Of a stretch of DNA of 33,109 nt, positions 17,189-33,109 are shown piece after piece. The position numbers were made by a program, and so were the translations under genes. Within the stretch, counting starts at the first letter, position 1. Each line of letters opens with the position of its first letter. The notes beneath the pieces were generated by a model, which saw only the letters and a list, made by a program, of their open reading frames with translations, did not search any database and was not told where the DNA came from. Source of the stretch: an uncultured Clostridium sp. (GTDB taxonomy: Bacteria > Bacillota > Clostridia > TANB77 > CAG-508); contig CANSII010000017.1 in the NCBI GenBank assembly GCA_947646915.1, forward strand, positions 1 to 33,109. The letters are read 5' to 3'.

Positions 17189-18160
17189 TTATGCTTTAAA
17201 TACAAATTCTTTATGGTATTTTAAATATTTAATTCTTTTATCATCTAAAGGTAATTTATCAACTTTCTTTCCTGTATATATTCCTAATCTCTTTTGATTT
17301 ATTGGCGAAATCCAAGGAGATACAATTAGTTTTTTGTCTTCATCAAAAGTAATAAATCCTCTATCAAATAGTTTATCATATGTTGGTGTAAAAATAAATC
17401 CATTCTTTGGATCAGTTTTTTCTCTATTATTAGAATTTGCCCAAGGTTTTATATGTGATGCAATTAGTAATCTTTCATCATTTACCATTGTAAATGGACA
17501 ACATTGGCATTCTTCTAATAATTTTGTTCGATATTTCCCTTGTCCTATTCTTGCCTGAATTATATTTTCTTTTCTCTTTTTAGATATTTTTTCATTACTT
17601 TCTATATTTTCTTCTTGTATCTTTTCTTCTGGCATTTGGTAACCAATAATGTCAGGTTTATAGTCTATAAAAATTTTAAAATAATAAACTATATTTTTAT
17701 CTTCATCTTTTAATTTTAGAACTGATAAATATGATATATTTGGTAAGCCTACTTTTCTCATAAATTCATAATATTCTGATTTTGCATTAACATAAATTCT
17801 TGGTGGCTTTACTTTAACTCTATATAATTTAAATTTTAATATTTGACTATTAAATTTAGATAATTCTTCTTGTAATTTTATAAATCTTTTCCCCATTGTA
17901 TTGGCTCTAATATAATTTTGTTGTGGATTCTCATATTCTTGTTTTGCTTCTTCCATAAAAGTTTCAAAGTCTTCTTTACGAAAAAAACAATCTACATTAA
18001 AATCTCCAAAAAATTTGAATATTCTCTCACCTTCTTCTCCAACATACAGTTTGGCTTCTCCATGGCCTGTTCCTATTTTATTTTCTTTTAAAAAAGAATC
18101 TGCTAATGTTACGTATTCAAGAGTATCTATTACTTCATAATCTTTTCCATCTATTTTCAT
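17189..18160 (-). CDS. HNH restriction endonuclease, partner of the C5 methyltransferase
   Basis: Predicted type II restriction nuclease. Of 323 residues, the N-terminal half (about 1-175) has no family I can name and may bind DNA. The C-terminal HNH_2-like domain carries ECQCCPF (218-221 cysteines), ASHIKPW (His 236) and DPKNGFIFTPTYDKLFDRGFI, the Asn and Phe pattern of this nuclease class. Its ATG overlaps the methyltransferase stop as ATGA, so translation is coupled, with methylation enzyme first. No separate control protein gene is seen. The recognition site cannot be read from sequence. Confidence 0.85.
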   Translation of the reverse strand: MKIDGKDYEVIDTLEYVTLADSFLKENKIGTGHGEAKLYVGEEGERIFKFFGDFNVDCFFRKEDFETFMEEAKQEYENPQQNYIRANTMGKRFIKLQEELSKFNSQILKFKLYRVKVKPPRIYVNAKSEYYEFMRKVGLPNISYLSVLKLKDEDKNIVYYFKIFIDYKPDIIGYQMPEEKIQEENIESNEKISKKRKENIIQARIGQGKYRTKLLEECQCCPFTMVNDERLLIASHIKPWANSNNREKTDPKNGFIFTPTYDKLFDRGFITFDEDKKLIVSPWISPINQKRLGIYTGKKVDKLPLDDKRIKYLKYHKEFVFKA

Positions 18161-19947
18161 TTATTTTTATCTCCTTCATTATTAAAGTCATAACTTTCAA
18201 GTATTTTAGACATTATAGCAATTAAAACATCTACAACTATTGAATTTCCAGCTTGTTGATACATTGATGTATCTGAAACTACTATTTCAAAACTATCACA
18301 AAATCCCATTAGTCTTAAACACTCTCTTGGTGTTAGTTTTCTTATTCTTCCTTCTGTTGTAACATAATTATCAATACCCGCTCTATGCATTTTATGCATC
18401 GTTGTTAATAATGGTCTTGCAACATCTAAGTTAATTTTTGGTTTTGAATAAAAATCTTTAGTGCCTGTTGATAAAACATATTTTTCTACCTTTTCAGATA
18501 AAAAATATTTTTCAAGATCTTGCATTGTTTTTTCCATGTCTTTATTTTCTTCTACAAATACAAAATCTCCATGCCAATTGAACTGCTGATTTTTCTTTTG
18601 ACATAACGAAACTTCACCATCAATTTGAGTATATCTTTTAGTTAAATTATTTTTATCTGTAACAAAGTCTACACCCTTTTTTGGTAAATAATATTTCCCA
18701 GAAACATTATCTATTAGAAAATCTTGCATTTTTTTGTCTAATTTTACAGGTTTAGGAAAATCAAATTGTTTTTTTAATTTTAAATCATTTCTAAAACCTA
18801 CTACAAATATTCTCTCTCTATTTTGAGGTATTCCAAAATCTTTAGCATTTAAAACTTCTTTTTTCCATGTATAGTCTAAATCTGTAAATACTTTTTTCAT
18901 TACCTCCCATGTATGCCCATCATCATTACTTAATACAGCTTTAACATTTTCATATATAAATACTTTCGGTCTAATTTCTGAAATTAATCTAGCATACTCA
19001 TAAAATAATGTTCCTCTTGTGTCTTCTAGTCCTCTTTGTTTTCCAACTAAGCTAAATGATTGACATGGGCTTCCTCCAACAAATAAATCTACTTTATCCT
19101 TATATTCGTTACCATCAAGAAATGATACATTCCAATGAAAATCCTCTTCATTTATATTATAGTTTGCTAAATAACTTTTCTTTACTTTATTTTGCTCTTC
19201 CTTTCCTTTATATAGTAAGTCTATATATTCCTTTTTTTCTTTATAATTATCAATTTTTGATAATTCATTATGTATTTTTAGAGTATTTATTCTTTCATGC
19301 AACATTGCTAAATATTCACATATTTCTTTAACATCTTTTTGAATTTTTTTAAAGTCATATTTATTTGAGATTTCATTTATATATTTTAATTCTTCTATAA
19401 CTTTTTTCCAATCTATATTTTCTGTTGATTTTATTTTCTCATTTTCTTTTATTAGTGTTTTTATTGCATTATCTTTTAAATAATCATTTATTATTTTTAA
19501 TGTTATTTTTATTTGTTCAAATATATTATTTGAATCTTGTTTTTTCATGTTTTTTATAGTTTCTAAAAAGTTTTTATATTCCTTTTTCTTTGTGTCTTTT
19601 ATTTCACATTTTAATATATTTTCTAATATTTTTCTTATGTTACTTTTTAATTGTCTTTCCTTTATAGTTTTTATATAATTTTCAGCTTTTTCTAATTTGG
19701 ATTTACATTGTTTTAGTTGTATATCAAATTCTTTTCCTTCATCACTTTTATTTTTCGCTTCATTAATTATATTTTTTAATTTTTTTGTTTCATCTTTTAT
19801 TTCATTTATATTGTCTTCTATATTCTTAGATAAAATATCTACATCTCCATTATCACATGCAAAGACTATTTCATGTTCTAATCCCATTCTTTCTAAAGCA
19901 TGTTCTATTGCTCCTATTCCACTAAATACTGTTGCTAATTTTATCAT
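18157..19947 (-). CDS. dcm: DNA cytosine-5 methyltransferase with large coiled-coil insertion
   Basis: Methylates cytosine at C5 to protect host DNA from the adjacent nuclease. Motif I is at 7-16 (VFSGIGAIEH), motif IV has the catalytic PCQ at 294-296 (GGSPCQSFS), motif VI is ENV at 333-335, motif VIII QNRERIF at 375-381, a target-recognition region lies at about 395-530, motif IX is around RKLTPRECLRLMGF (536-549), and motif X is QQAGNS (564-569). Unusually, about residues 41-255 between the motif II region (ACDNGDVD) and motif IV are a Lys/Glu/Ile-rich helical insertion. With AAGGAG 6 nt upstream, the start is firm. At 596 residues it is well above the roughly 330-450 typical. Confidence 0.93.
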   Translation of the reverse strand: MIKLATVFSGIGAIEHALERMGLEHEIVFACDNGDVDILSKNIEDNINEIKDETKKLKNIINEAKNKSDEGKEFDIQLKQCKSKLEKAENYIKTIKERQLKSNIRKILENILKCEIKDTKKKEYKNFLETIKNMKKQDSNNIFEQIKITLKIINDYLKDNAIKTLIKENEKIKSTENIDWKKVIEELKYINEISNKYDFKKIQKDVKEICEYLAMLHERINTLKIHNELSKIDNYKEKKEYIDLLYKGKEEQNKVKKSYLANYNINEEDFHWNVSFLDGNEYKDKVDLFVGGSPCQSFSLVGKQRGLEDTRGTLFYEYARLISEIRPKVFIYENVKAVLSNDDGHTWEVMKKVFTDLDYTWKKEVLNAKDFGIPQNRERIFVVGFRNDLKLKKQFDFPKPVKLDKKMQDFLIDNVSGKYYLPKKGVDFVTDKNNLTKRYTQIDGEVSLCQKKNQQFNWHGDFVFVEENKDMEKTMQDLEKYFLSEKVEKYVLSTGTKDFYSKPKINLDVARPLLTTMHKMHRAGIDNYVTTEGRIRKLTPRECLRLMGFCDSFEIVVSDTSMYQQAGNSIVVDVLIAIMSKILESYDFNNEGDKNK

Positions 19948-25569: not shown

Positions 25570-25786
25570 TTAAGTTTTATCTCCAAACATTCATTTATTT
25601 TTTTATAACTAATTTATACTACTCCGCACACCATATCAACCTCTATCATTACCTTAATTTTATTATTTTCTACTCTTTTAACCTTATTTTTACTTTTTCG
25701 CTCAAAACTAATAAAATCCTCAAATGCACTAAATTCAACTATTGTATCGTACCTTTTAGATATAGCACCGAGCAACATTCCACATG
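25570..25786. repeat. Direct repeat copy A bracketing a 3.2-kb module
   Basis: About 217 bp that recur in the same orientation at 28740-28952 with roughly 90% identity (about 12 substitutions in the shared coding part, a few indels beyond it). Both copies start at TTAAGTTTTATCTCCAAAC and break off at ACATG. The coding part is the 3' end of an unrecognised gene. Confidence 0.85.
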
Positions 25787-28739: not shown

Positions 28740-28952
28740 TTAAGTTTTATCTCCAAACATTCATATTTTTATTATAAAATTATACTACTCCGCACACCAG
28801 GTCAACTTCTATCGTTACCTTAATTTTATTATTTTCTACTCTTTTAACCTTATTTTTACCTTTTCGCTCAAAACTAACAAAATCCTCAAAAGCAGTAAAT
28901 TCAACTATTGTATCAAATCTTTTAGATATAGCACCGAACAACATTCCACATG
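28740..28952. repeat. Direct repeat copy B bracketing the 3.2-kb module
   Basis: About 213 bp matching 25570-25786 in the same orientation. Distance between copies is about 3.17 kb, so recombination between them would remove the AlbA_2, HIT, phosphatase and HD genes. This copy lies immediately upstream of the HD gene promoter region (minus strand direction). Confidence 0.85.
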
Positions 28953-28959
28953 TTTTCAT
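28780..28959 (-). pseudogene. 3' gene fragment, copy B (unrecognised protein)
   Basis: Open frame of 59 residues starting MKTCGMLFGAISKR and ending EVDLVCGVV. It is the same C-terminal peptide as at 25614-25808. The ATG lies at the edge of the shared block and has only a weak ribosome-binding site (AAAAGATTTTTAG). It could be an expressed small protein or a gene tail left by rearrangement. Confidence 0.4.
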
Positions 28960-30721: not shown

Positions 30722-31092
30722 ATACACTGAAATGTATGCACTCTGCATATTATCTGTAAGTAAATAATTCTTACAGATAATTAGAAAGCTTGTCTTTCTA
30801 GATGTTTTCAGGAAATGCTCTGCTTTCCTTATCCTGCCATTAAATCTTTCTAAAATTTAATGGAAATCAAAAAAAGAGAAGTATCTGAAAAAATACTTCT
30901 CAACTAGAACTATATAAGTTACTTATATATAAGTGAGATCTAAAATCTCAAATTAGATTAATCTATACTATATATTATATTAAAATTTTTAAAATATATG
31001 CAAAAAGAGTAAAGTTTTGAACCTTTACTCTTAAATCAACCTTATATATTTCTATATAAGTAAGCTCCACCTTACGTGGAAAATATTTATTA
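30722..31092 (-). ncRNA. Promoter-driven hairpin-rich noncoding transcript (candidate)
   Basis: No gene, but about eleven stem-loops lie in series. In minus-strand order: 31080-31066 (TCCAC/GTGGA) competing with 31075-31060 (GTAAG/CTTAC), 31060-31041 (8-bp stem, GAAA loop), 31032-31005 (10-bp stem then TTTTTG), 30950-30934, 30934-30921, 30901-30876 (9-bp stem then seven Ts), 30863-30837 (9 bp), 30836-30809, 30800-30782 (7 bp), 30781-30749 (12-bp stem), 30749-30735 and 30737-30722 followed by TTTTTTA. A strong promoter sits just upstream. The first 80 nt (two hairpins plus terminator-like stem) could be one sRNA, and 30950-30869 a second of similar plan. Alternatives are a multi-part terminator region or a large structured RNA. 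Confidence 0.45.
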
Positions 31093-31097
31093 ATTTA

Positions 31098-31125
31098 ATT
31101 ATACCATAATTTTAGGCAATGTCAA
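31098..31125 (-). promoter_or_regulatory. Near-consensus sigma-A promoter inside the mazF 3' end
   Basis: TTGACA (31125-31120) and TATAAT (31103-31098), both exact, with a 16-nt spacer. The -35 box overlaps the last codons of the ancestral mazF frame. It points into the hairpin-rich stretch, with a start expected near 31091. Confidence 0.8.
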
Positions 31126-31623
31126 GATTTTTTAAAAGTCTTTTCTCTAGTCTTATCATAAATTCAGGTGTCATTTTTCCTATTTTATAAATTAAACGAG
31201 ATTTGTCTATACAAGAGATTTGTCTATACAAGAGATTTGTTCTGCCTTTGCTTTAGATGGTAACTTATTTAGTTTTCCTTCTTCTAAGTCTGTTTCTAAA
31301 ATCTTTTCGTGTGTATCACATAACCTATTAGAACTAGAAATTGGTATTACAATAACTGTACTTGATACACTATTTTTATATGAATCTTGCATAATAATTC
31401 CCATATGTGTATTACACAATTCTTTTCCTACATTTTGACCAAATTCTATTAAATATATTTCACCTTTTCTTGGTCTTATAGGGTGTAAGTTATTTTTTCT
31501 GTTCTTCTCAAATTGTTCAGATTTATCATTTAAGTCAAACTTATATATAAACCAATCAAAAAACTTTTTAAAATTTTTTCTATTTATATATTTAGTAACG
31601 TTTTTTATAACATACTCCAACAT
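31112..31623 (-). pseudogene. MazF/PemK-type toxin gene, truncated by a 17-bp tandem duplication
   Basis: MazF toxins are mRNA interferases. The current frame (31207-31623, 138 codons) has an N-terminal extension of about 50 residues, then the toxin fold: RKGEIYLIEFGQNVGKELCNTHMGIIMQDS, TVIVIPISSSN, and AKAEQISCIDKS, before LV and a stop. Removing one 17-bp repeat unit at 31201-31234 continues the protein as SRLIYKIGKMTPEFMIRLEK to a stop at 31112, the usual C-terminus of the family (about 163 residues). About 27 residues of the dimer-forming C-terminal helix are thus lost. No MazE antitoxin gene is adjacent. It starts 3 bp after the MazG-like gene stop. No good Shine-Dalgarno at normal spacing, so coupling is likely. 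Confidence 0.85.
31198..31240. repeat. 17-bp tandem repeat, about 2.5 units
   Basis: The unit ATTTGTCTATACAAGAG occurs at 31201-31217 and 31218-31234. Three bases before (GAG) and six after (ATTTGT) continue the period, giving a 43-bp tract. Units are identical, so the duplication is recent or actively slipping. Confidence 0.95.
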
Positions 31624-31626
31624 ATT

Positions 31627-32001
31627 TTAAGTATTTTTCCTCCACTCTTTTTTCATTTCATTTTCTTCTCTTTCATCTATTTCTTCTTGCTCAACATCAA
31701 TCAAATAAATTTTATCATTAAAAGAACCTTTTTTATTATTTTTAATTTTTCTAGCATTTTCTATATCCTCTATTGATATATTCCTATCCTTCATTATAGC
31801 AAAAATAACTTCCATTAAATCAGCAAGTTCTTTTATTGAATGTTCTTCTATAAATTCATGTGCTTCTTCAAATAATTTTTTATCTAATTCTTTTAAATAC
31901 TCATCATTATTTAGAATTTTAAAATTACATTTTCTTCCTTCCATAGAGTTAATATTCTCTGGTATTCTATCTCTTACTAATTTATTATAAATATATTTCA
32001 T
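31627..32001 (-). CDS. MazG-like nucleotide pyrophosphohydrolase (COG4997-type)
   Basis: All-alpha NTP pyrophosphatase expected to hydrolyse a nucleoside triphosphate to its monophosphate; substrate unknown. Characteristic start YNKLVRDRIPE (about 6-16) and metal-binding helices KLFEEAHEFIEEH and KELADLMEVIFAI. Of 124 residues, with AGGAG 9 nt upstream. It is directly ahead of the MazF-type toxin gene, echoing the E. coli mazEF-mazG neighbourhood, although this protein is the COG4997 type, not classic MazG. It is transcribed away from the excisionase-like gene. Confidence 0.82.
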   Translation of the reverse strand: MKYIYNKLVRDRIPENINSMEGRKCNFKILNNDEYLKELDKKLFEEAHEFIEEHSIKELADLMEVIFAIMKDRNISIEDIENARKIKNNKKGSFNDKIYLIDVEQEEIDEREENEMKKEWRKNT

Positions 32002-32204: not shown

Positions 32205-32426
32205 ATGTGTAGTAATAATTCGCAAAAATATTATAAATCTATGTTTAAAAATTATCCTGATGTTGTAAATGTTAAAGAACTACAATCAATGTTAGGTGGT
32301 ATTAGTAAAAGGCTAGCCTATCACTTATTAAGAAATAATATTATTAAATCCATTAAAATCGGTCGACAATATAAAATTGCTAAAACTGATGTAATTTTAT
32401 ATCTTACTGAAAAAAATTGCTCATAA
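32205..32426 (+). CDS. Excisionase-like helix-turn-helix protein
   Basis: A 73-residue protein with a MerR/excisionase-type winged HTH: VVNVKELQSMLGGISKRLAYHLLRNN as the HTH and IKSIKIGRQYKIAKTDVILYL as the wing and following helix. Such proteins direct integrase toward excision or act as small activators. TGGAGG 7 nt before the ATG. It lies 90 bp ahead of a tyrosine integrase on the same strand, which strongly supports an excisionase role. A 7-bp stem (32428-32447) follows its stop. Confidence 0.88.
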   Translation: MCSNNSQKYYKSMFKNYPDVVNVKELQSMLGGISKRLAYHLLRNNIIKSIKIGRQYKIAKTDVILYLTEKNCS

Positions 32427-32516: not shown

Positions 32517-33109
32517 ATGCAAAATATAACAGAAAACCTACGTAAAACAAATATAACTGTTAGTTTACACGAAAAAAATAATATATATCAAGCAGTAATT
32601 AATTATAAAGATGATAACAATAAAAGGAAACAAAAATGGGTATCTACTGGGATTAAAGTCGCTCGTGGTAATAAAAGACTGGCTCTACAAAAATCTGAAG
32701 AATATAGAGAGCAATTTGAAAAGTTTTTTAATTTGAAAGAACGTATTAAACAAGAAAATGATGAACAGGCTAAAATGTATATGCTATTTAGAGAAAAATT
32801 GCATATAATGGATTCTCGTAATTATTATGATGAAAATATTCTTTATTTCGACTACCTAAAATTATGGATTGAAAAAGTAAAAAGTAATCTTGAATTAACT
32901 ACTTATACATCTCATTTGCAAATGATTAATTCAAGAATTAAAAATTATTTTACTTTAAACCCTATTAAGCTATTAGAGCTTGAACCTATACATATACAAA
33001 ATTTTTATGATATTTTGTTAGCTGATGGACTAAAACCTACTACTGTTATTCGTTATCATGCTATTATTAGAAAATCACTTGATTATGCTTTTAAAAATGA
33101 TTTAATTGT
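32517..33109 (+). CDS. Tyrosine recombinase/integrase, N-terminal part (runs off the window)
   Basis: Integrase of a mobile element. Only 197 full codons lie inside the window. Residues about 10-60 look like an Arm-type DNA-binding domain (NIYQAVINYKDDNNKRKQKWVSTG). About 95-197 is the SAM-like core-binding domain (LWIEKVKSNLELTTYTSHLQMINSRI, LEPIHIQNFYDILLADGLKPTTVIRYHAIIRKSLDYA). The catalytic domain with its Tyr lies beyond 33109. GGAAGGAG 6 nt before the ATG. The element this integrase serves probably lies mainly to the right. Confidence 0.9.
   Translation, partial: MQNITENLRKTNITVSLHEKNNIYQAVINYKDDNNKRKQKWVSTGIKVARGNKRLALQKSEEYREQFEKFFNLKERIKQENDEQAKMYMLFREKLHIMDSRNYYDENILYFDYLKLWIEKVKSNLELTTYTSHLQMINSRIKNYFTLNPIKLLELEPIHIQNFYDILLADGLKPTTVIRYHAIIRKSLDYAFKNDLI

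What the first reader, a model, noticed from the sequence alone, without database searches (positions are those of the whole stretch)
31112..31623. Toxin gene mazF disabled by an exact 17-bp tandem duplication
Deleting one copy of the identical 17-bp unit at 31201-31234 restores the reading frame and yields the standard MazF C-terminus (SRLIYKIGKMTPEFMIRLEK and onward to a stop at 31112). The duplication is a clean, readable lesion. Because the units are identical and the length is not a multiple of three, slippage could switch the toxin on and off, so this may be phase variation rather than simple decay.
Basis: partly seen in the sequence, partly recalled or inferred. Interest (0 to 1): 0.75.

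Follow-up and report, generated by a model that had tools for sequence, protein, structure and literature searches.

The report
Broken mazF beside a conserved RNA
A toxin-like gene in a gut Clostridia genome carries a recent 17-base duplication that cuts its protein short, which looks like ordinary loss of function, but right beside it lies a conserved, apparently undescribed small RNA gene that travels with this toxin family and may be its antidote.

Summary
An exact 17-bp tandem duplication (array 31198-31240, 2.5 units) frameshifts a PemK/MazF-like gene: 138 aa instead of about 164. All 20 relatives readable there carry one unit; the two-unit form is in 1 of 210 genus genomes, this one. It most likely arose by slippage between 9-bp repeats present in the two nearest relatives. 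The flanks are little decayed, so the lesion is recent. Switching could not be tested; nothing shows it, and the repeat is not conserved. Best reading: a young loss-of-function allele, not phase variation.

The bigger result lies just downstream: a ~95-nt noncoding RNA gene with a perfect sigma-70 promoter (31125-31098), covarying stems and a terminator (31097-31002, minus strand), with no Rfam match at curated thresholds. Of 27 distinct strong RNA loci, 22 have this mazF clade beside them, in either orientation; 10 of 11 clade genes in the genus have it, and the eleventh is a possible exception cut by its contig end. No protein partner is conserved. Three loci keep the RNA beside a damaged toxin gene and five have no toxin gene. 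An RNA antitoxin is inferred, probability about 0.4.

The parts
31198..31240 (-). 17-bp tandem array, 2.5 exact units; three 9-bp ACAAATCTC arms separated by TTGTATAG
   Evidence: (TRF); one-unit relatives L037 and L038 carry two exact arms 17 bp apart
31207..31623 (-). PemK/MazF-like open frame, 138 aa, ends early in the array
   Evidence: PF02452 46.4 bits against a cut-off of 23.1, profile positions 2-84 of 109
31112..31201 (-). Out-of-frame C-terminal piece of the same gene, 29 residues plus stop
   Evidence: 90 of 90 bases identical to L037 and L038
31098..31125 (-). Promoter of the noncoding RNA, TTGACA-16-TATAAT, 12 of 12, overlapping the last codons of mazF
   Evidence: 11-12 of 12 in 24 of 27 distinct strong RNA loci
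31002..31097 (-). Conserved noncoding RNA gene (RNA1): leader, stem 1, stem 2, terminator stem
   Evidence: 103.7 bits
30876..30965 (-). Second, weaker copy of the RNA (RNA2) ending in a terminator
   Evidence: model match 30891-30965, 28.3 bits here, 35-39 bits in L037, L038, L039, L079; terminator 30901-30876
31627..32001 (-). MazG-like (KLVRDxIPE motif, recalled) protein, 124 aa, 3 nt upstream of mazF; not a conserved partner
   Evidence: (only weak profile matches, below cut-offs)
32205..32426 (+). Excisionase-like DNA-binding protein
   Evidence: PF12728; TIGR01764 25.4 bits, below its cut-off of 28.8
32517..33107 (+). N-terminal part of a phage-type integrase, cut by the contig end
   Evidence: PF14659, phrog_1

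Best explanation
The 17-bp duplication is a recent, private loss-of-function allele of a PemK/MazF-like gene that sits by mobile-element genes. It most likely arose by replication slippage between two pre-existing 9-bp direct repeats (inferred mechanism; the repeats are shown). It removes the last 28 residues, which align with the ends of solved MazF proteins; [quoted passage not shown] The gene belongs to a two-part element whose second part is a noncoding RNA gene at its 3' end with its own strong promoter (shown by conservation and covariation, not by expression). The RNA is probably the antitoxin of this toxin-like protein, acting directly as an RNA rather than by pairing with the start of its mRNA (inferred, about 0.4). 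Loss of the toxin with the RNA kept is what one expects when such a pair decays.
For: One-unit form in 20 of 20 readable relatives, and in a remnant in L165; two-unit form in 1 of 210 genus genomes and in no viral contig. Slippage arms: exact 9 of 9 in L037 and L038, 8 of 9 in L039 and L047, 6-7 of 9 in five others. Recent: 90 of 90 bases after the array equal L037 and L038, and dN/dS before it is 0.08-0.18 against L037-L039. The family is otherwise kept: pairwise dN/dS 0.05-0.18 among 8 sequences, except 0.24 for one pair that differs at two sites. Other, different lesions: L048 has a 240-nt in-frame deletion between AAAATTA words, L046 an early frameshift, L165 (G434) only a remnant of the C-terminal end. 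RNA: fold z -5.1; 12 of 22 consensus pairs with changes on both sides; 95.5% of cells paired and covariation 0.363 against at most 0.103 when slid (28 pairs of which four are pseudoknot pairs). Co-occurrence: 22 of 27 distinct strong RNA loci have the mazF clade beside them; 10 of 11 clade genes in the genus have the RNA. No protein partner in more than 4 of 13 loci within 900 nt.
Against: No reads, RNA or activity data were available, so switching, expression, toxicity and neutralisation are untested. Five of 27 RNA loci have no such mazF nearby, so the RNA may have another job; three of these five also have a degraded promoter. L040 (G204) is a possible exception: a full-length gene with unrelated sequence after the stop and no RNA in the 56 nt before the contig ends. 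L012 (G056) keeps a middle fragment of the gene with no RNA. The RNA is downstream or convergent, not upstream as in type III systems, and its possible pseudoknot is not kept in all (79.7% of cells). One of five covariation measures, the number of further pair types, is no higher than in shuffles (469 of 500 as high). The Arg named as catalytic in SaMazF is His here, so the protein may not be an active RNase. Zero to one differences in 198 nt after the array against 14 and 11 in 388 before it also fits selection on the RNA promoter rather than youth of the lesion.
Confidence: 0.7

Rival explanations
1. Phase variation: cells in the population switch the toxin on and off by gain and loss of 17-bp units.
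For: Exact units of a length not divisible by three; tandem duplications in pneumococcal capsule genes are cited as a cause of phase variation, with at most about 1e-5 reversion expected for a 9-bp insertion (passages of PMC4022640).
Against: 20 of 20 readable relatives one-unit, two-unit in 1 of 210, slippage arms not conserved, no second allele found in the assembly. Other members are broken by unrelated lesions.
Confidence: 0.12
2. Assembly artefact, or a minor allele picked up in a metagenome assembly.
For: 99 contigs and 94.4% completeness suggest a metagenome bin (inferred). All 12 named loci are from MAGs. Contigs of five relatives end inside this gene (L044/L047, L046, L011, L082, and L079 inside the array).
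Against: The array is 43 bp, shorter than ordinary reads, and assemblers tend to collapse rather than expand repeats (general knowledge). No other exact non-triplet array of 17 bp or more overlapped an open frame in the 433 kb examined.
Confidence: 0.1
3. The RNA is not an antitoxin but a regulatory or mobile-element RNA that hitchhikes with the gene, or an antisense RNA against the mazF start.
For: Five RNA loci lack the gene; the gene lies by integrase and excisionase genes in the window, L037 and L038, with pieces of both in L040, and by recombinase-like frames (by eye) in L041, L046 and L048.
Against: Adjacent in 22 of 27 loci, in both orientations and amid largely different neighbours. 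Pairing of the RNA leader with its own mazF start is matched or beaten by 50-192 of 197 other gene starts in 13 of 15 loci; L042 and L043, which are near-identical, reach 10 of 197.
Confidence: 0.45
4. The 138-aa product is a functional short variant.
For: It keeps the residues aligned with the two catalytic positions of SaMazF.
Against: All 17 full-length relatives keep the C-terminal part, which has many invariant residues in the 15 aligned and aligns with the ends of the 13 solved MazF sequences matched.
Confidence: 0.04

Closest known systems
PemK/MazF toxins of type II toxin-antitoxin systems (PF02452)
   Same: 15 of 15 full-length relatives scanned match PF02452; profile alignment to 13 solved MazF sequences within positions 43-162.
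   Different: About 50-residue N-terminal extension, invariant His73 at the position of SaMazF Arg24 and Ser96 at Thr47, and no conserved adjacent antitoxin protein.
Type III toxin-antitoxin systems (ToxIN, CptIN, TenpIN)
   Same: A MazF-family protein next to a structured noncoding RNA gene, with a second RNA copy in tandem in the window and 10 of 18 relatives searched. Type III toxins share the MazF/Kid fold (passages of PMC5086642).
   Different: The RNA is downstream or convergent with its own promoter, not upstream in one operon; units are separated by terminators; pseudoknot not established.
Tandem duplications in pneumococcal capsule genes (type 3 locus, cap8E, tts)
   Same: Exact tandem duplication inside an open frame that stops the gene product.
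   Different: There phase variation is reported (titles and passages cited in PMC4022640); here it is not known. The primary papers were not read.

Membership tests
PemK/MazF family (PF02452) | Profile match above the curated cut-off | tested here: met
   Window piece 46.4 bits, L038 63.8 bits, cut-off 23.1
PemK/MazF mRNA interferase | Catalytic Arg (Arg24 in SaMazF) and Thr (Thr47) | tested here: not met
   His73 and Ser96 at these positions, invariant in 15 of 15; residues named in PMC4041440 passages. By motif, 3 of the 5 other PF02452 proteins of this genome (L004, L005, L006) also have His there
PemK/MazF mRNA interferase | Sequence-specific RNA cleavage and growth arrest | not testable with these tools
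   No wet assay
Type II mazEF module | Adjacent antitoxin protein gene | tested here: not met
   No ORF of 28 aa or more is shared within 900 nt by more than 4 of 13 loci; MazG-like gene in 4 of the 13, frameshifted in one of them (L041)
Type III toxin-antitoxin | Toxin preceded by a terminator and an array of repeats of the antitoxin RNA, one promoter | tested here: not met
   RNA is 3' of the toxin or convergent and has its own promoter; criteria from PMC5086642 passages
Type III toxin-antitoxin | H-type pseudoknot in the RNA | tested here: inconclusive
   Four tested pseudoknot pairs: 79.7% of cells, one pair with a change on both sides
Type III toxin-antitoxin | RNA neutralises the protein | not testable with these tools
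   No wet assay
Phase-variable locus | High-frequency reversible switching | not testable with these tools
   No reads or cultures
Phase-variable locus | Repeat tract kept or varying in copy number among relatives | tested here: not met
   One unit in 20 of 20 readable relatives; arms decay with distance

The most novel reading that the evidence does not exclude
A PemK/MazF-family toxin, a family known with protein antitoxins (recalled), is held in check by a small structured RNA made from its own promoter at the 3' end of the toxin gene. It would be a new kind of RNA-antitoxin module that resembles type III systems in its parts but not in its layout, and the broken gene in this window would be a toxin lost from a pair whose RNA is still intact.
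Probability: 0.35. Interest if true: 0.75.

Novelty: new variant of a known kind. Interest (0 to 1): 0.5.

Why it matters
The duplication alone is an ordinary lesion. The RNA beside it matters because this clade of MazF-like genes has no visible antitoxin protein, and a conserved RNA with a strong promoter is the only constant neighbour found. If it neutralises the protein, RNA antitoxins extend to the large PemK/MazF family, and other long MazF-like genes without an evident antitoxin should be searched for RNA partners. The claim is directly testable with two natural, unaltered parts.

Tried and rejected
Phase variation: see rivals. MazG-like neighbour as antitoxin: rejected, because full-length mazF occurs without it (L042, L043, L045, L008, L010, L072, L074, L076-L078), with a frameshifted copy (L041) and with one that has an internal stop (L040). 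Antisense pairing of the RNA with the mazF start: own pairing matched or beaten by 50-192 of 197 control gene starts in 13 of 15 loci, 10 of 197 in L042 and L043. H-type pseudoknot: plausible in the window (GUAAG/CUUAC) but not kept in the L076 clade. Rfam: at the curated threshold only two tRNAs in flanks of L045 and L072 among 7 sources; at E up to 5 in 30850-31130 only RatA (24.5 of 49 bits, other strand) and sbrA (22.6 of 45 bits), both below cut-off. Four weak RNA-model hits (G193, G267, G320, G077; 33.8-48.2 bits) have no mazF and no promoter above 8 of 12 and were dropped as chance. More distant PemK genes: 10 loci, none with the RNA by the model, though L014 has a 55-nt BLAST match to the promoter and leader. 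Phage and plasmid collections: no DNA match; viral contigs: none. Literature: no paper held all of toxin-antitoxin, phase variation, toxin gene, slippage or all of MazF, PemK, histidine, catalytic arginine; two held toxin-antitoxin, tandem duplication, toxin gene and frameshift, neither on this by title; this is one library only, and the RNA itself was looked for in Rfam only. Papers seen as passages: PMC4022640, PMC11868660, PMC11394972, PMC4041440, PMC5086642; all others as search listings.

Full report
OBSERVATION. The window carries, on the minus strand, a PemK/MazF-like open frame of 138 aa at 31623-31207 (PF02452, 46.4 bits against a cut-off of 23.1). An exact tandem array of period 17, 2.5 copies, lies at 31198-31240 and ends the frame with a TAG inside the unit. 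The rest of the gene follows in another frame (29 residues, stop at 31112-31114). I searched the two pieces apart and made no mended copy. In all 17 distinct relatives with a full-length copy they match in one frame and overlap by one codon (15, two). In 20 Markov-simulated windows no exact array with 17 or more matched bases at period 10 or above appeared; in 433 kb of this genome (window plus 400 kb in 20 stretches) this was the only exact array of period 17 or more, not a multiple of three, that overlaps an open frame of 80 aa or more.

RELATIVES. Distinct relatives that can be read across the array number 20 (L008, L010, L037-L043, L045, L047, L048, L072, L074, L076, L077, L078, L082, L169, L170); all 20 have one unit, as has the remnant in L165. 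Relatives cut by a contig end before the array (L011, L044, L046), ending inside it (L079) or fragmentary (L012) were not counted. The two-unit sequence occurs in 1 of 210 genomes of the genus, this one, and in no viral contig. The collection holds one genome per species, so variation within the species could not be tested.

ORIGIN AND AGE. The unit is bounded by the 9-bp word ACAAATCTC. In the one-unit relatives L037 and L038 two exact copies of this word lie 17 bp apart, an apt substrate for slippage; L039 and L047 match 8 of 9 and five others 6-7 of 9. The repeat is thus an accident of the nearest lineage and not a kept feature. The 90 bases after the array equal L037 and L038; over 198 nt there are 0 and 1 differences, against 14 and 11 in 388 nt before it. 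Before the lesion dN/dS against L037-L039 is 0.08-0.18. The lesion is therefore probably young, although the quiet 3' side is also explained by the RNA promoter that overlaps it.

EFFECT. The lost part aligns with the ends of the 13 solved MazF sequences found by a profile search and holds many residues invariant in 15 relatives. [quoted passage not shown] Loss of function is likely but inferred. The genome holds five other PF02452 matches, one a short canonical one. A caution on 'toxin': the residues named as catalytic in SaMazF, Arg24 and Thr47 (passages of PMC4041440), align with His73 and Ser96, both invariant here.

PHASE VARIATION OR DECAY. A 17-bp duplication can revert; for a pneumococcal capsule gene at most about 1e-5 is expected for a 9-bp insertion (passages of PMC4022640). 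But phase variation means high-frequency, reversible switching, and its wider use where reversion is not shown is advised against (passages of PMC11868660); nothing here shows it. Other members carry unrelated lesions: L048 an in-frame deletion of 240 nt between AAAATTA words, L046 an early frameshift, L165 (G434) a remnant of the C-terminal end, L012 a middle fragment. The neighbours decay as well: the MazG-like gene has a stop in L040 and a frameshift in L041, and the integrase is split over two frames in L038. I read the duplication as one more private lesion.

THE RNA. Looking for what else is kept, I found that the sequence 3' of mazF is conserved where the protein is only 57-67% identical, and that in some loci it is inverted. 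In the window it begins with a 12-of-12 sigma-70 promoter at 31125-31098 whose -35 box lies in the last mazF codons, followed by 31097-31002, of which 31092-31002 folds with z -5.1 into two hairpins and a terminator stem. On 17 aligned sequences 12 of 22 consensus pairs have changes on both sides. Counting 28 pairs (these stems plus four pseudoknot pairs), 95.5% of cells pair and the covariation score is 0.363, against at most 0.103 for slid partners; four of five measures exceed all 500 shuffles and the fifth, further pair types, does not (469 of 500 as high). A covariance model found 16 places in 15 of 210 genus genomes, and 9 further strong places outside the genus among 385 genomes of the order. 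A weaker second copy lies downstream in the window (28.3 bits) and in ten of the 18 relatives searched (31-39 bits). Rfam has no match at its thresholds.

ASSOCIATION. Counting places of 60 bits or more once (15 in the genus, 9 more in the order, and L042, L043, L047), 27 distinct RNA loci remain; L037, L038 and L039 are the same records as G400, G419 and G451 by their coordinates. Of the 27, 16 have a full-length mazF of this clade beside them, 3 a damaged one (this window, G184/L048, G434), 3 one cut by a contig end (G191, G144, L047), and 5 none (G011, G036, G111 contig 40, G463, G309). In G096, G042, G035, G168, G078 and G426 the RNA is convergent with the gene. The promoter scores 11-12 of 12 in 24 of the 27; the exceptions are three of the five loci without mazF. 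From the protein side, 11 genus genes match the clade profile at E 1e-50 or better; 10 have the RNA. The other, G204 (same record as L040), has unrelated sequence with an inverted repeat after its stop codon and ends 56 nt later, so it is a possible exception. Among weaker matches G184 has the RNA, G025 (L011) ends at a contig edge, and G056 (L012), a middle fragment, has no RNA in its locus. Ten more distant PemK loci have no model hit, but L014 shows a 55-nt BLAST match to the promoter and leader. No ORF of 28 aa or more is shared within 900 nt of the gene by more than 4 of 13 loci.

WHAT THE RNA MAY DO. Type III toxins share the fold of the MazF/Kid family (passages of PMC5086642) and are neutralised by RNA. 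Here the only constant neighbour found is an RNA, and in eight loci it is present where the toxin gene is broken (3) or absent (5). An RNA antitoxin is the best single reading, at about 0.4. Against it: layout unlike type III, pseudoknot not established, five loci without the gene, one possible toxin without RNA, and no data on expression or binding. Antisense control of the mazF start was tested and not supported in 13 of 15 loci.

VERDICT. The finding is confirmed as a lesion and ordinary as biology; phase variation is not supported. The adjacent conserved RNA gene is the part worth following.

Noticed in passing
31002-31125 (-): Noncoding RNA gene with a perfect sigma-70 promoter beside mazF, absent from Rfam at its thresholds; it became the main result.
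   Followed up: yes
L014:1213-1266 (-): Downstream of a diverged MazF-like gene that follows a MazG-like gene (G047 contig 21), a promoter and leader 80% like that of the RNA over 55 nt, with different sequence after it: perhaps a diverged version of the RNA.
   Followed up: partly
L174:4704-4800, L175:5063-5160, L176:3165-3261, L167:1501-1598, L168:1501-1598: RNA loci without any mazF match; two (G011, G036) lie by a transglutaminase-like frame (by eye), whose kin also lies near mazF in L011.
   Followed up: partly
L079 (G191 contig 178): Contig with the identical RNA and the identical last 93 bases of mazF that ends inside the repeat arm, so its allele cannot be read.
   Followed up: partly
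L040:3000-3057: After the mazF stop codon an unrelated stretch with an inverted repeat (TTGTGACTA...TAGTCACAA), where relatives have the RNA promoter; the contig ends there. It looks like a mobile-element end.
   Followed up: no
25592-25786 and 28758-28952: Direct repeat of 195 nt, 91% identical; the second copy includes most of a 59-aa open frame (28780-28959). A kin lies in L038.
   Followed up: no
17189-19947 (-): Cytosine-5 methyltransferase gene next to an HNH-type restriction endonuclease-like gene (type II restriction-modification).
   Followed up: no
L004, L005, L006 (own genome): Long MazF-like proteins of the same genome also carry His, by motif, where SaMazF has its catalytic Arg: perhaps a wider His-type group.
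   Followed up: partly
L044/L047, L046, L011, L082, L079: Contigs of five relatives end inside this mazF gene (in one MAG two contigs do, overlapping at residues 77-93), as if it often breaks assemblies.
   Followed up: no
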